A DNA stretch of 47,328 nucleotides. It comes from a virus. The position numbers and the translations under genes are program-made. A model generated the notes under the pieces. The model had not been told where the DNA came from. It was given only the letters and a program-made list of their open reading frames with translations, and searched no databases. The DNA lies in IMG/VR virus record IMGVR_UViG_3300043398_000223, positions 1-47,328 of that record; one strand, given 5' to 3'. Positions 8,865 through 21,086 of this stretch are shown in pieces. Numbering within the stretch: position 1 is the stretch's first letter; every line of letters starts with the position of its first letter.

Positions 8865-8902
8865 CGACGACTCCATGCGATGAAGCGTAGCGTCTCGGTC
8901 AT
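8861..8902 (-). CDS. 13-aa micro-ORF (MTETLRFIAWSRR)
   Basis: Its ATG overlaps the methyltransferase stop as ATGA, and its own TGA overlaps the next gene start as ATGA. A peptide this short may matter only as a coupling relay that carries ribosomes from the methyltransferase to the basic 50-aa gene. Confidence 0.45.
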   Translation of the reverse strand: MTETLRFIAWSRR

Positions 8903-9801
8903 CCCATCATCCTCGCTATCCCCATGAGCACATGCCCGACCACCTCGGCGCAGTCGGGGACTACGGCGTTGCCCAGCGCCTTCAGGGCAAGTCGGTCCAG
9001 TCCAACGGAAAACCCTGGAGCCAGCTTACAAAACGCCGGTTGAGCCTCAGCCGGCACTCGCCCCCATGCGAGCAGGTCGTCGGGAGCGGGCGGCCACTTC
9101 GGCAGGTCGCATCCGTCAGGCTCGTCCCCTCGTTCGAGGCGTTGCCATCCAGACCCCGAGCTCCACGCGACCCACTGCGCTTGGAGTCGCCCGCCGTCGC
9201 GGTTGGCCACAGCTTCGCCCAGCTCTCGAGTGATGGGTTCTTCGCTGTCGCATACGTCTCGCGACCATCCATCGGATCGCCATTGTTGCTCGAGCCGAAC
9301 CTGCTCGCCGTTGGCGTCGGATACTCGCCACGCGACCACGAAGATCCTCGCCCTCTTGTGGGGCGCTCCCACGTCCGCAGCTTGTAGATCGAACCAGAGC
9401 GCATCGTACCCGCGATCGGCAAGGTCTTGCAGGACCCGATCGAGTCCGCGACGCGCGAGCGCAAGGACGTTTTCGATGACGACGAAGCGCGGTCGCAGCT
9501 CGCCAATGAGCCAGGCGAAGTTTGCCCAAAGGCCGCTTCGAGCACCCTCGAGGCCAGCTCCTTTGCCAGCGAGTGAGATGTCCTGGCATGGGAATCCTCC
9601 GCAGAGGACATCGACGGGCTCAAGCTCCCAGGGGTACACGTCTCGGACATCGGAGAACCTCCGCACACTGGGCCAATGCTTCTCAAGGACGCTGCGGCAG
9701 AACGGATCGGCCTCTACTTGCCATGCGACTTCACCGACGCCAGCGAGCTCGAGCCCACGTTCTAGACCGCCGATGCCGCTGAAGAGAGAGCCGATCTTCA
9801 C
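8899..9801 (-). CDS. C5-cytosine DNA methyltransferase
   Basis: 300 aa, GTG start overlapping the upstream stop as GTGA. All key motifs are present: FSGIGG (7-12, SAM binding), GGFPCQDIS with catalytic Cys72, VIENV (108-112), the QxRxR-like HKRARIF (149-154), and ALGNAVVP near residue 285. The target-recognition region (about 165-270) gives no readable specificity. No cognate restriction endonuclease is seen nearby. The likely role is to modify phage DNA against host restriction. Confidence 0.95.
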   Translation of the reverse strand: MKIGSLFSGIGGLERGLELAGVGEVAWQVEADPFCRSVLEKHWPSVRRFSDVRDVYPWELEPVDVLCGGFPCQDISLAGKGAGLEGARSGLWANFAWLIGELRPRFVVIENVLALARRGLDRVLQDLADRGYDALWFDLQAADVGAPHKRARIFVVAWRVSDANGEQVRLEQQWRSDGWSRDVCDSEEPITRELGEAVANRDGGRLQAQWVAWSSGSGWQRLERGDEPDGCDLPKWPPAPDDLLAWGRVPAEAQPAFCKLAPGFSVGLDRLALKALGNAVVPDCAEVVGHVLMGIARMMG

Positions 9802-10006: not shown

Positions 10007-10100
10007 TGGAACGAGCTGGAGTCGAACCAGCAACCGCGCCGACTTCCCAGGCCTCCGGGGCCTGTACTCATCGGTGCTCTACCTGTTGAGCTATCGTCCC
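10007..10100 (-). tRNA. tRNA-like gene A with 26-nt anticodon loop
   Basis: Acceptor GGGACGA pairs with TCGTTCC (one G-T). D-arm GCTC/GAGC has an AACAGGTA loop; T-arm GCTGG/CCAGC has loop TTCGACT. The anticodon stem CCGAT (10074-10070)/GTCGG (10043-10039) is sound but encloses 26 nt instead of 7. Inside, CAGGCC (10064-10059) and GGCCTG (10053-10048) form a 6-bp hairpin. The last seven loop bases, CTGGGAA, would make a classic loop with anticodon GGG (Pro) if 19 nt were removed; the hairpin tip would instead show CGG. Variable loop is 7 nt. The 3' end is ACCG, not CCA. Amino-acid identity is undecided. Confidence 0.65.
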
Positions 10101-10152
10101 AAACCCCCGTCTCTCCGGGGCGTCAAGCCTCTTTCATGTGGGCTTTCACTGG

Positions 10153-10223
10153 CGGGCCGGTGAGGACTTGAACCCCAATCACCCCGATTTGGAATCGGGC
10201 GCTCGACATTGAGCTACCTGCCC
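10153..10223 (-). tRNA. tRNA-Trp (anticodon CCA)
   Basis: Cloverleaf: acceptor GGGCAGG/CCGGCCC (one A-G mismatch), D-stem GCTC/GAGC with a short six-base loop AATGTC lacking the usual GG, anticodon arm CCCGA-TTCCAAA-TCGGG with anticodon CCA, variable GTGAT, and T-arm TGGGG-TTCAAGT-CCTCA. Discriminator is G and CCA is encoded (10152-10150). It reads UGG. It lies between two abnormal tRNA-like genes and downstream of the TGA-interrupted adenine methyltransferase. Confidence 0.88.
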
Positions 10224-10245
10224 AGAAAAGTCCGTTCGCTCCCGG

Positions 10246-10332
10246 TGGACCAAGCCGTCATGTGCGGTTTTCGAGGCCAGCACACATCACAGAGGGTTTT
10301 GGCCGACGAAGGTTCGCTAGCCTCTTCGTCCC
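10246..10332 (-). pseudogene. Degenerate tRNA-like remnant C
   Basis: The ends resemble tRNA-like A (5' GGGACGA; 3' TTGGTCC-ACCGGG), and the 87-nt length is similar. I cannot fold a T-arm with a TTCRA-type loop. The best internal pairings are GACGAAG/CTTCGTC and TGTGC/GCACA with a 14-nt loop. It is either a decayed tRNA or an unrelated structured spacer. Confidence 0.3.
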
Positions 10333-10349
10333 ATGAGCCTCGGATTCGG

Positions 10350-10439
10350 TGGAACAGGGTGGGTTCGAACCACCATCTCCAGCTTCACGCGGCCCCCGGG
10401 CCTGATCTGCTGGTATACTTCCATTTGTACTACCGTCCC
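10350..10439 (-). tRNA. tRNA-like gene B with 25-nt anticodon loop
   Basis: Acceptor GGGACGG/CTGTTCC (two G-T), D-stem GTAC/GTAT with loop AAATGGAA, T-arm GGTGG-TTCGAAC-CCACC, variable AGAT. The anticodon stem CCAGC (10413-10409)/GCTGG (10383-10379) is perfect but encloses 25 nt, including GGCC-CGGG-GGCC (10402-10391). Roughly two thirds of the loop positions match tRNA-like A. The last seven loop bases, GCGTGAA, would give anticodon GTG with C33 instead of U33. The 3' end is ACCG. The decoding capacity is unclear. Confidence 0.6.
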
Positions 10440-16933: not shown

Positions 16934-17388
16934 TGGCTTTCGTAAAGAAAACGATTCGTCAGCTCAAGCGCACCGCCACGGAGCTCGACAAGCTCAGCGA
17001 CAAGACGGCCGAATCGTTCGGCATCTTGCGCGACATGATCCGAGAGCTGTACGAGGCCATCTCTCGAGAGATTGTGCCGGTCGTCGTCAGCTTGCGCGAC
17101 GAAGTGAACAAGACCTGTGGCGACACCGTGAACGTCGGCGATGAGGACTATTCGATCCTTGCCACCGATCGCAGAATCATTTGCGACAACACGATCGGCG
17201 TGACCGTCTATCTTCCGTCGGTGGAAGAGAAGCTCATCGGGCAGGTGTTCAGCGTCTATCGCACCGGCGCCGCGGTAACTCTCCAGACGCAAACGGGGGA
17301 GCTTGTCGACGGCGCGGCCTCTGTCGCCATCGGAGCAAACTCGGGCGTCGAGGTGTTCTGCGACGGCGAAGGGTATCTCTCGGCGTGA
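16933..17388 (+). CDS. Coiled-coil plus small beta-domain virion protein
   Basis: 151 aa, TAATG overlap. Residues 5-60 form a coiled coil (KKTIRQLKRTATELDKLSDKTAESF). Residues 68-151 (VNVGDEDYSILATDRRIICDNTIGVTVYLPSV, then a TGELVDGAASVAIG repeat and DGEGYLSA) resemble the small beta domain often found at the end of phage fibre-like proteins. It may be a minor structural or accessory protein. GTGA overlap with terL. Confidence 0.65.
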   Translation: MAFVKKTIRQLKRTATELDKLSDKTAESFGILRDMIRELYEAISREIVPVVVSLRDEVNKTCGDTVNVGDEDYSILATDRRIICDNTIGVTVYLPSVEEKLIGQVFSVYRTGAAVTLQTQTGELVDGAASVAIGANSGVEVFCDGEGYLSA

Positions 17389-18878
17389 TCAAGGGCTACA
17401 CGCCGAGCCCTTGGCAGCAGAACTTTCACTCTCGAAGGGAGGACGAGGTTTTCGGGGCGGGGTCGGCTGGCCCCGGTAAGACGGAAACGCTCGTCCACGA
17501 TCCGTTTACGCAAATCATGGTGGAGCACGAGAGGTGCCTGCTCCCCAAGGATCATCCTCACTACCATCCGATGGGGAGCTCGAGCGGATGGTGCCTGACG
17601 CTGCGTCGCACGTTTCCGCGCTTGAAGCCGATCATGGACAGGCTTCACCGCATCGTGCCGCTTGTCGATCCTGGCGCTCGGTGGGTCGCCAGCGACCACA
17701 TGTGGATCATGAGCAGTGGCTACAAGTACCAGTGCGGCCACTGCAACGACCGCAACGACTGGGAACAGTACATGGGCTTCGAGTTCTCTCAGATCAACTT
17801 CGACGAGTTGATCGAGTTCGAAGAGGAGCAGTACGAGCAGATCACGTCTCGTCGCCGAAGCTCAGATCCGATCCTCGAGCGTCTGCGCCGTATCGCGTCC
17901 GCCAGCAACCCGGTGATGACGCAGCACGCCAACGACAACATCGTGGTCAACAACCCGCACTGGGTTCGCGATCGCTTCGTCAAACCGTGGCCAGACGGCA
18001 ACCGCACGCTCAAGAAGCGCCTCGACTACCCCGACGGTCGCGTAGGCTGGTGGACGAGTATCTATCTTCCGGCGACGATCGACGACAACCCAAACCCCGC
18101 GTTCGTCGAAAGCTACAAGCGCTCGCTTCTTTCGAAGCCAGCCCACATTCGTCAGGCGCTCCTTTACGGAAACTGGTGGGTGACTGCCGGCGGCTACTAC
18201 GCAGAAGCGTGGAACCCGCGCCTGCACGTCTGCAAGCCGTTCCGCATCCCGTCCGACTGGCCGCGCTTTCGTTCGCTCGACTGGGGCTACAAGGTGCCTG
18301 GCGTCGTCGGCTGGTTTGCCATGGACCCGGAAGGGAACCTCTTCCTCGAGCGCGAGCTTACCTTCAAAGGCAAGACTGACATCGAGGTCGCTCACATGAT
18401 CCGCGACATCGAGCGATCGATGGGTCTGTGGTCCGGCGGCTCGAGCAAGATCACGGGACCAGCAGACGATCAGCTTTGGGAGCAGCGTGGTAGCTCGGCC
18501 CGCTCCATGGCGAGCGTCATGGCAGAGGCCGGCGTCTCATGGGTGAAGGCCGACAAGCGCAGCCGAGCTCGCGCAGCCGAACGCCTCCTGAAGCGCCTCA
18601 CCGATCACGACCACGAGACGACGACACCCGGAATCGTCTTCTTCTCCACGTGTACGGGAAGCATCCAGACCATCCCGAGTATCCAGTGTGACAAGAACGA
18701 CGTAAACATTCCGGCAGACGGCGGCGACGACCACTGGCACGACATGGTGCTCTACGGTTGCAGCTATGCGTCGCACGGCCGCATCGGCGTCCCGGCCACC
18801 TCAGGCCCGGACGACGACGAGGACGACAAGGAAGATGCGGACGACAGCTTCCGCGGCGTCACTGGCTACGGTTGCTAG
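17385..18878 (+). CDS. terL: Terminase large subunit
   Basis: 497 aa from GTG 17385 (GTGA overlap); the longer in-frame reading crosses the upstream gene. The ATPase domain has GAGSAGPGKTE (24-34, Walker A with an extra Gly/Ala) and SQINFDE (135-141, Walker B). The nuclease domain has SLDWGYK with D299, GPADDQLW with D361/362 and DDHWHDMV with D453. It pumps DNA into the prohead and cuts it. The long acidic C-terminal tail (DDDEDDKEDADD) is notable. The packaging mode cannot be read from the motifs. Confidence 0.95.
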   Translation: MIKGYTPSPWQQNFHSRREDEVFGAGSAGPGKTETLVHDPFTQIMVEHERCLLPKDHPHYHPMGSSSGWCLTLRRTFPRLKPIMDRLHRIVPLVDPGARWVASDHMWIMSSGYKYQCGHCNDRNDWEQYMGFEFSQINFDELIEFEEEQYEQITSRRRSSDPILERLRRIASASNPVMTQHANDNIVVNNPHWVRDRFVKPWPDGNRTLKKRLDYPDGRVGWWTSIYLPATIDDNPNPAFVESYKRSLLSKPAHIRQALLYGNWWVTAGGYYAEAWNPRLHVCKPFRIPSDWPRFRSLDWGYKVPGVVGWFAMDPEGNLFLERELTFKGKTDIEVAHMIRDIERSMGLWSGGSSKITGPADDQLWEQRGSSARSMASVMAEAGVSWVKADKRSRARAAERLLKRLTDHDHETTTPGIVFFSTCTGSIQTIPSIQCDKNDVNIPADGGDDHWHDMVLYGCSYASHGRIGVPATSGPDDDEDDKEDADDSFRGVTGYGC

Positions 18879-18908: not shown

Positions 18909-21086
18909 GTGGAAGAAGAGACTGTCATCGATCTAGACGAGCCTGAGAAGGCAGATCCGAAGAAGGCTCCGCTCGAGTACGAAGACGAGGATCCGAACCT
19001 CGTTCGAGCATTCCGCGCCAACGAAGACGGCCTCGCATGGCTCAAGAAGTTCAGCCTCCGAGTCAAGCGCCGCTTCGATAGCGAGTGGGACGCGAGCGAA
19101 GAGATGCGTCAGCGCAAGGCTGACAACATGCTGATCTTCGCCGGCAAGCTCCCGAAGAAGCAGTTCCCCTTCGAAGACTGCGCGAACGTCAACATCCCGA
19201 TCGCGCTCGAGACGATCACCCGCCTCCACTTCCGAGCCATCGGCGAGCTCTACGGCGACTGGAGCCGAATCTTCGACGTGCTGCCGACCGGCCCCGACGA
19301 CGAGGCCGTGGCATCACTCTTGACTCGCCACGGCAACTGGCAGCTCCGCGAGGAATGCCTCGACTTCCGCCGGCAGCAGTACAGAGCGCTCCTGTTGTAC
19401 TACATGCAGGGCGACGTAGCTGTCGAGAGTTATCGCGACACGTTTCGAGACATCAATCGCCACGACACGCTCACGTGCGACGATCTCGTGATCCCGTACG
19501 CGTACACGTCCACGATGCCGGACCTGTCCGACTGCCCCTATTACTTCGTCATCAAGCGCTACAAGGAGCACGAGCTCGAAGACCAGGCGGAGATTTGGGA
19601 GGGTGTCGACGAAGTGCTCGAGCGGAAGAATCCGCCGTGGGACTCCGAGCCCGACAGTCGGATGAAGGAGGCCGCCGACGAGGCTGCTGGCATCTCCATC
19701 TCGAGTGATACCGACAGCGGGGCGCCGTACAAGATCCTTCAGTACGAGGGCTGGGAGAAGCTTCCGGGCCAGAAGCGTCAGCGTTGGGTCAAGGCTTACG
19801 TCGACTACGCGACGGGCAATGTGCTTCACCTTGCGTTGCACGAAGAGGCCGACTGGCAGGAGCAGGCGCTTTACGAGGCGCAACTCGAGGAGCGCCAGGC
19901 GTACCTCAACGGCATCGACGACCACGCTGCGATGCTGCGTTCGTACGATGATGCATTGGCCATGCAAGCCGATGCGCCCCCGCAAATCGACCCTCTCAGT
20001 GGGATGCCGCTCCAGGCTCCTCCGCTCCCCGAACCGCCGCCGCCTCCTCCGATGCCGCTGTGGATGAGCGAAAAAGCCTCGCGCATGGCCGAGGACGACG
20101 AAGCGGACGTGGAGGTGGACGATCTCGGCATTCTGCCCGATCGACCCAAGATGCGCCCGATCCACATGATCGCTCGCGCCGTGTGCATCGAGCCGCTTGC
20201 AGGCTCCATCGGCATCGGCTTTGGCGACATCGAGGCCGACTTCAACCGCGCCGCGAACACGCTGATCAACCAGGCGATCGACGCAGCTACGCTCTCCAAC
20301 GCTGGCGGCTTCATCATCTCGAGCTTGGTGCAGTTCGAGGAGAAGTTCTCCTACAGACCCGGCAAGATGAACCGTCTGAAGGCGGGCATCTCGGGGGAGG
20401 AGCTCAGCAAGAACATCTTCCCGCTTCGGCCTCCTCCGGCGAATCCGCAGATGGTCGAGCTCGCGCAGAAGGTCTACGAGTGGGGCCAGTCCGCGATCCA
20501 GGCCCCAGACGTTCTCAGCGGCGAGAGCGGCAAGAGCGGCGAGACGTTTCGCGGCATCGCGACGCGTGTCGAGCAGGCCACCAAGCAGCTCTCGGTCAGC
20601 ACGCGCAACTACGCCACAAGCTGCCTGACTCCGACGCTGCGCAACAACGCACGCCTGAACGCGATCTTCATGCCGGAGTCGCAGTTCGTGTCCGTGAACG
20701 ACCACGTGCTCGGCAAGGCAAGCCGCTTCGAGGTTGGTCGCGCGATGTATCGCCGCAACTATCGAGTGAGCATCGCAGCAGACCTGAAGTTCTCAAGCGA
20801 GGCTCAGCGCATCTCCGAGGCCGATCAGCTTATCGAGCTTGGCCTGAAGTATCCGCCGCTTGGGCAAGACTTGGCCTACATGCACGGGGCGTACAAGCGT
20901 GCGCTGGAAGCCCGAGGCAAGCACGACATGGTTCCCACGCTCGGCGAAGCTCCGCCGCTCCCGAAGACTCCGTTTGCGATCATGCCGGCGGTTCCGCAGC
21001 AGCCAGGCGGGCCGCTTCCGACAGGACAACCGACCCAACCGAACGGCCCCAGCGGGCCGGCTCCAGAGGGTCCGCCACAACAGTGA
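18909..21086 (+). CDS. Portal protein
   Basis: 725 aa, GTG start. It follows terL and precedes the scaffold and capsid genes. The N-terminal acidic leader is followed by a helical wing region. The middle has GDVAVESYRDTFRDINRHDTL. The stem/clip part includes FNRAANTLINQAIDAATLSNAGG and VLSGESGKSGETFRGIATRVEQATKQLS, typical of podovirus-like portals. The C-terminal 60 residues are Pro/Gly/Gln-rich and probably disordered. A Pro-rich insert (about 355-385) is unusual. It forms the dodecameric DNA entry ring. Confidence 0.85.
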   Translation: MEEETVIDLDEPEKADPKKAPLEYEDEDPNLVRAFRANEDGLAWLKKFSLRVKRRFDSEWDASEEMRQRKADNMLIFAGKLPKKQFPFEDCANVNIPIALETITRLHFRAIGELYGDWSRIFDVLPTGPDDEAVASLLTRHGNWQLREECLDFRRQQYRALLLYYMQGDVAVESYRDTFRDINRHDTLTCDDLVIPYAYTSTMPDLSDCPYYFVIKRYKEHELEDQAEIWEGVDEVLERKNPPWDSEPDSRMKEAADEAAGISISSDTDSGAPYKILQYEGWEKLPGQKRQRWVKAYVDYATGNVLHLALHEEADWQEQALYEAQLEERQAYLNGIDDHAAMLRSYDDALAMQADAPPQIDPLSGMPLQAPPLPEPPPPPPMPLWMSEKASRMAEDDEADVEVDDLGILPDRPKMRPIHMIARAVCIEPLAGSIGIGFGDIEADFNRAANTLINQAIDAATLSNAGGFIISSLVQFEEKFSYRPGKMNRLKAGISGEELSKNIFPLRPPPANPQMVELAQKVYEWGQSAIQAPDVLSGESGKSGETFRGIATRVEQATKQLSVSTRNYATSCLTPTLRNNARLNAIFMPESQFVSVNDHVLGKASRFEVGRAMYRRNYRVSIAADLKFSSEAQRISEADQLIELGLKYPPLGQDLAYMHGAYKRALEARGKHDMVPTLGEAPPLPKTPFAIMPAVPQQPGGPLPTGQPTQPNGPSGPAPEGPPQQ

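What the first reader, a model, noticed from the sequence alone, without database searches (positions are those of the whole stretch)
10007..10439. Two tRNA-like genes with 25-26 nt anticodon loops carrying a shared hairpin
Elements at 10007-10100 and 10350-10439 have well-formed acceptor, D and T arms and perfect anticodon stems, but 25-26 nt instead of 7 in the loop. Both loops contain a similar GC-rich hairpin (core CAGGCCC..GG..GGCC), about two thirds identical position by position. In the first, removing 19 nt leaves a canonical CTGGGAA loop with anticodon GGG. This could be a mini-intron, an extended anticodon arm with an unusual decoding role, or a non-decoding tRNA decoy (for example against host tRNA nucleases). 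A tRNA-Trp with a normal loop lies between them.
Basis: partly seen in the sequence, partly recalled or inferred. Interest (0 to 1): 0.82.

Follow-up and report, generated by a model that had tools for sequence, protein, structure and literature searches.

The report
Phage tRNA-Ala mimics lacking an anticodon
A phage genome carries two RNAs shaped like alanine tRNAs in which the codon-reading loop is replaced by a longer arm, so they probably do something other than decode messages; similar RNAs turn up in many unrelated phages, including cultured Klebsiella phages.

Summary
Two minus-strand tRNA-like genes (10007-10100, 10350-10439) pass the Rfam tRNA cut-off. All 21 cloverleaf pairs form in each, and between the copies 6 pairs change on both sides with none broken. 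Their anticodon loops are 26 and 25 nt. No fold within 6 kcal/mol restores a 7-nt U33 loop. The loop hairpin beats composition in the first copy (1.8% of shuffles) but not in the second (36%); the loops resemble each other beyond chance (p 0.0009). New here: both keep the tRNA-Ala acceptor set G1-C72, G2-C71, G3:U70, A73. In 117 ordinary viral tRNAs every gene with that set (7/7) reads Ala codons, so the 'hidden' Pro anticodon GGG is probably accidental. They are not an isolated oddity. Scans of viral contigs gave 39 distinct long-loop tRNAs (about 8 expected by chance), and two 'tRNA-OTHER' genes in cultured Klebsiella jumbo phages are further examples. These lack the C-U33...A38 signature of archaeal intron tRNAs (1/39 versus 28/32). 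Best reading: non-decoding, probably alanylated tRNA-scaffold RNAs, perhaps decoys. Function is inferred; no homologues of these two were found, and expression is untested.

The parts
10007..10100 (-). tRNA-like element 1 (94 nt, discriminator A at 10007, followed by CCG, not CCA)
   Evidence: Rfam tRNA 46.3 bits; MFE cloverleaf
10044..10069 (-). 26-nt anticodon loop of element 1: GAGTACAGGCCCCGGAGGCCTGGGAA
   Evidence: no 7-nt U33 alternative within 6 kcal/mol
10048..10064 (-). 6-bp hairpin CAGGCC-CCGGA-GGCCTG inside loop 1
   Evidence: MFE -11.1 kcal/mol, 1.8% of shuffles as low
10350..10439 (-). tRNA-like element 2 (90 nt, discriminator A at 10350)
   Evidence: Rfam tRNA 45.1 bits; MFE cloverleaf; ARAGORN calls 10348-10439 tRNA-Asp(atc)
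10384..10408 (-). 25-nt anticodon loop of element 2: AGATCAGGCCCGGGGGCCGCGTGAA
10391..10402 (-). 4-bp hairpin GGCC-CGGG-GGCC inside loop 2
   Evidence: not above composition (36% of shuffles as low)
10094..10100 (-). acceptor 5' strand of element 1 GGGACGA; pairs with 10008-10014 (TCGTTCC): G1-C72, G2-C71, G3:U70 with A73
   Evidence: sequence; Ala predictor in control set 7/7
10433..10439 (-). acceptor 5' strand of element 2 GGGACGG; pairs with 10351-10357 (CTGTTCC): same G1-C72, G2-C71, G3:U70, A73 set
   Evidence: sequence
10150..10223 (-). ordinary tRNA-Trp (anticodon CCA, encoded CCA end) between the two elements
   Evidence: ARAGORN; Rfam 53.0 bits over 10153-10223

Best explanation
The two elements are non-decoding tRNAs derived from tRNA-Ala. 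Shown: acceptor, D and T arms and the anticodon stem are kept by compensatory change, while the 7-nt anticodon loop is gone, replaced by a 25-26 nt extension with a hairpin. Inferred from established tRNA biology: such an RNA should still be cut by RNase P, receive CCA, be charged by host alanyl-tRNA synthetase (which reads G3:U70 and not the anticodon) and be stable, but it cannot pair with a codon in the ribosome. Inferred further: it acts as a tRNA-scaffolded RNA in which the tRNA body gives maturation, stability and recognition by tRNA-binding factors. It could work as a decoy for host factors that bind or attack the acceptor or elbow, resistant to anticodon nucleases, or display the extended arm. 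I put about 0.55 on 'non-decoding tRNA-scaffold RNA' and about 0.25 on a decoy role within it.
For: Cloverleaf scores and folds. 42 of 42 stem pairs standard across the two copies, with 6 two-sided and 3 one-sided changes and none broken. T-loop TTCGA, GG in the D loop, U8 and A14 retained (sequence). GGG/UCC + A73 acceptor set in both; in 117 ordinary viral tRNAs the 7 genes with that set all have Ala anticodons GGC/TGC. Recurrence: 39 distinct long-loop cloverleafs with a perfect 5-bp anticodon stem from two viral scans against about 7.7 expected from shuffled inserts; U at loop position 2 in 15/39 against 114/117 in ordinary viral tRNAs. Other genomes also carry two such elements: record G042, and two annotated 'tRNA-OTHER' genes of 102 and 108 nt in Klebsiella phage vB_kp_MJ359, the second 100% identical in 10 records. 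Some long anticodon arms carry a conserved RNA module. Replacing the anticodon loop of a tRNA by a hairpin is the engineered 'tRNA scaffold' used to produce RNA in E. coli (PMC3753655).
Against: No homologue of these two elements was found in IMG/VR or in phage records, and TerL relatives lack them, so selection rests on the comparison of two paralogues. The hairpin of element 2 is no better than its composition. No sigma-70-like promoter was found nearby, although other promoter types are not covered. Expression, CCA addition and charging are untested. Ala acceptor identity is not general in the wider class (G3:U70 in 2 of 39).
Confidence: 0.55

Rival explanations
1. Decaying pseudogenes: two tRNA-Ala copies whose anticodon arms took an insertion and are drifting.
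For: No homologues in relatives; no encoded CCA; element 2 hairpin at chance level; long-loop tRNAs encode CCA less often than ordinary viral tRNAs (7/39 vs 64/117).
Against: All 42 stem pairs intact with 6 two-sided compensations between diverged copies, including two in the anticodon stem, which a dead gene need not keep; loops of the two copies still similar (P 0.00085); the same architecture recurs in many unrelated phages and is nearly unchanged in isolates of a Klebsiella phage group.
Confidence: 0.22
2. The tRNA form is only a carrier: the extended arm itself is a specific protein- or RNA-binding module, as seems the case for other phage tRNAs whose arm carries a conserved 29-nt motif.
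For: A conserved 29-nt hairpin motif is found in anticodon arms of about six tRNA-like RNAs and in about 80 other contexts.
Against: That motif is not in the window elements, and no second context of the window hairpin was found.
Confidence: 0.13
3. Mini-intron: 18-19 nt are spliced out to give ordinary decoding tRNAs (Pro GGG for element 1).
For: Removing 19 nt from element 1 leaves CTGGGAA (sequence).
Against: No 7-nt choice gives U33 in element 2; Pro anticodon conflicts with the Ala acceptor; the C-U33..A38 signature of the mostly archaeal intron tRNAs (28/32) is absent from the viral class (1/39); no splicing or RNA-ligase gene among the window genes that could be identified; no 37/38 bulge-helix-bulge layout.
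Confidence: 0.08
4. Unusual decoding tRNA that reads codons or shifts frame with a hairpin-bearing loop.
For: The tRNA body is intact.
Against: A 25-26 nt loop with an internal hairpin has no room in the A-site decoding centre (general knowledge); no U33 at the usual place.
Confidence: 0.02

Closest known systems
Phage-encoded tRNAs, including those proposed to evade anticodon nucleases by anticodon-loop mutations (PMC10264068)
   Same: tRNA cloverleaf in a phage genome next to an ordinary phage tRNA; a changed anticodon loop would escape anticodon nucleases.
   Different: Those tRNAs still decode; here the decoding loop is lost. A text search of that paper found no mention of insertions or introns.
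Engineered tRNA scaffold (PMC3753655)
   Same: Acceptor, D and T arms kept, anticodon stem-loop turned into a hairpin insertion site.
   Different: Man-made; here natural and with alanine-type acceptor.
Archaeal intron-containing tRNAs
   Same: Long anticodon loop closed by a normal 5-bp stem.
   Different: Those keep C32-U33-anticodon-R37 | intron | A38; the window elements do not.
tmRNA tRNA-like domain
   Same: tRNA-Ala-like acceptor with G3:U70 and no anticodon loop, arm replaced by a longer helix (own knowledge).
   Different: Window elements have a full D arm, only 90-94 nt and no tag reading frame; ARAGORN finds no tmRNA.
tRNA-OTHER genes of Klebsiella jumbo phages (PQ182779 and relatives)
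   Same: tRNA body with extended anticodon arm; two per genome.
   Different: No sequence relation in the arm; acceptor not Ala-type; no description found in the papers searched.

Membership tests
tRNA (Rfam RF00005) | score above the curated cut-off with acceptor, D, anticodon and T stems | tested here: met
   46.3 and 45.1 bits against 29
tRNA (decoding) | 7-nt anticodon loop with U33 | tested here: not met
   26 and 25 nt; no alternative within 6 kcal/mol
tRNA-Ala | G3:U70 with G1-C72, G2-C71 and A73 | tested here: met
   sequence of both; the set marks Ala in 7/7 control tRNAs
tRNA-Ala | charging by AlaRS | not testable with these tools
   needs biochemistry
Archaeal/eukaryotic intron tRNA (37/38) | C32-U33 at the 5' side and A38 at the 3' side of the loop | tested here: not met
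   loops start GA and AG; 28/32 of control long-loop cellular tRNAs have it
Archaeal/eukaryotic intron tRNA (37/38) | splicing endonuclease and ligase available | tested here: inconclusive
   host unknown; none among the window proteins that were identified
tmRNA | tag reading frame and tmRNA fold | tested here: not met
   ARAGORN finds none; Rfam finds only tRNA in the window
viral long-loop tRNA group (defined here) | cloverleaf with 5-bp anticodon stem and loop of at least 12 nt without C-U33..A38 | tested here: met

The most novel reading that the evidence does not exclude
Phages across many groups use the tRNA fold as a natural scaffold for non-decoding RNAs: the anticodon arm is replaced by functional hairpin modules while acceptor and elbow are kept for maturation and for engaging tRNA-binding host factors. 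The window elements are alanine-charged members of this class.
Probability: 0.35. Interest if true: 0.82.

Novelty: new variant of a known kind. Interest (0 to 1): 0.62.

Why it matters
Why phages carry tRNA genes has been debated for decades, and the main proposals assume that the tRNAs decode. tRNAs that keep the body and discard the anticodon separate the two functions. They predict a role through the acceptor or elbow (charging, EF-Tu, tRNA-targeting toxins) or through the arm. Since cultured Klebsiella phages carry such genes, annotated only as 'tRNA-OTHER', the question can be tested directly.

Tried and rejected
Insert motif scan CAGGCCC..GGCC..T-arm: 20 hits, none a homologous long-loop tRNA. 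Acceptor/D pattern scan for close relatives: 3 hits, one ordinary tRNA-Leu and two non-tRNAs. BLAST of both elements against phages: only T-arm or D-arm fragments of ordinary tRNAs. TerL relatives: no long-loop tRNA. Solitary occurrence looked notable (12 of 22 long-loop records have that tRNA as their only one) but ordinary viral tRNAs gave 7 of 24, not significantly different (p 0.13), so I dropped it. The 29-nt module of other phage tRNA-like RNAs is not in the window. Known ribozymes in five other long-loop loci: none found by Rfam. ARAGORN's tRNA-Asp reading of element 2 needs a mismatched anticodon stem and is not the stable fold. Literature searches for extended anticodon loops, phage tRNA introns and tRNA-OTHER gave no description of such genes.

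Full report
What is in the window. The window is a 47,328-base IMG/VR virus record with a podovirus-like gene set: TerL at 17181-18878, SU10-type portal at 18909-21086, tail spike, head closure, and on the minus strand an ERF recombinase, a helicase and a C5 DNA methylase at 8899-9801. Just upstream of the methylase, on the same strand, lie three tRNA-type genes. The middle one is an ordinary tRNA-Trp. The outer two are the finding.

Check of the observation. Both outer elements pass the Rfam tRNA cut-off (46.3 and 45.1 bits). Without any constraint the minimum-energy fold of each is the cloverleaf with a 5-bp anticodon stem and a loop of 26 or 25 nt. Every one of the 21 stem pairs is standard in both. 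Comparing the two copies pair by pair, six pairs change on both sides and three on one side, none is broken. The loop hairpin is stronger than expected in element 1 (1.8% of shuffles) but not in element 2 (36%); the sequences of the two loops are nevertheless related (P 0.00085).

Identity. Both acceptor stems read GGG...UCC with A73, so both carry G3:U70, the classical alanine determinant that AlaRS recognises without touching the anticodon (general knowledge). I checked how well that set predicts identity in phages: among 117 ordinary viral tRNAs with the same D and T motifs (scan), seven have GGG/UCC+A73 and all seven have anticodons GGC or TGC, that is Ala; several of the seven are near-identical genes, so the independent number is smaller. 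So the 'Pro GGG' anticodon obtained by trimming element 1 is probably a coincidence, and the elements are best described as tRNA-Ala bodies without an anticodon.

Is it unique? Exact or near relatives were not found. A generic pattern for tRNAs with a long insert between D and T arms, followed by a structural filter, gave a different answer. The same kind of scan in cellular genomes returned 32 distinct ones, mostly archaeal, and these show the known intron layout: C-U33 at the start and A38 at the end in 28 of 32. In the viral set it is 1 of 39 (p about 2e-14), and U at loop position 2 is 15 of 39 against 114 of 117 in ordinary viral tRNAs. The viral set is therefore not made of 37/38 introns and most members have no decoding loop. 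The set is heterogeneous in acceptor and arm, and some members will be chance.

Cultured examples. One member came from a jumbo phage of Klebsiella. BLAST shows it in 13 phage records at 93-100% identity. In phage vB_kp_MJ359 it is annotated 'tRNA-OTHER', and a second 'tRNA-OTHER' of 108 nt, also with a long anticodon arm, follows about 500 bases downstream and is identical in 10 records. Two such genes per genome, near ordinary tRNAs, is the arrangement of the window.

Mechanism. Shown: conserved tRNA body, lost decoding loop, Ala-type acceptor, recurrence. Inferred: RNase P and CCA processing, alanylation, no decoding. The engineered tRNA scaffold, in which the anticodon stem-loop is exchanged for a hairpin insertion site, is used to produce RNA in E. 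coli (PMC3753655), so a natural counterpart is plausible. What the RNA then does is open. A decoy for host factors that act on acceptor or elbow, immune to anticodon nucleases, fits the known arms race over tRNAs (PMC10264068) but is not demonstrated.

Side result. One long arm (L093) contains a 29-nt motif that occurs in 102 viral stretches, 87 distinct contexts, nearly always preceded by GA and closed by complementary variable stems (72 of 87 with at least three pairs); six contexts are clearly the anticodon arm of a cloverleaf (a parser accepts eight, with 2.9 expected from mismatched flanks). Rfam 15 did not recognise it in L093 and the literature text search found no such string. It is not present in the window elements.

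Limits.

Noticed in passing
L093:7026-7054 and 101 further viral stretches (loci): A conserved 29-nt motif GTCCAAAGGGCTGTNACANGGCCAGCCAC at the tip of hairpins with variable complementary stems, in phage tRNA-like anticodon arms (L093, L364, L389, L408, L410, L434) and other structured RNAs; not matched by Rfam 15 in L093. Looks like an undescribed phage RNA motif.
   Followed up: partly
L366, L367, L370, L394, L426 (around the 29-nt motif): A recurring RNA of about 125 nt with three stems (GCATGAGGATTG..CTGGGGGACGCCCAGC..GGCAGTCCTCAT) carries the same motif.
   Followed up: no
L063, L087, L154, L170, L173, L174: A second shared arm sequence, TCATGGTGAAGGRCC..GGGAATAA-like, in long-loop tRNAs of several large phages.
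   Followed up: no
L574:1532-1633 and 2149-2256 (Klebsiella phage vB_kp_MJ359): Two 'tRNA-OTHER' genes with extended anticodon arms in a cultured jumbo phage, conserved in 13 records.
   Followed up: partly
L113 and L115: Two related long-loop tRNAs share acceptor, anticodon stem and loop ends (AAA...TACCTAA) but have different internal hairpins that both pair (TCCGG/CCGGA versus GAGGG/CCCTC).
   Followed up: no
L170:2958-3395: GOLLD RNA (194.9 bits) within a large phage tRNA cluster that also holds a long-loop tRNA.
   Followed up: no
L346 and L347 (record G044, 362 kb): Large phage tRNA cluster with many tRNA-like genes whose anticodon arms do not parse as normal 5+7+5.
   Followed up: no
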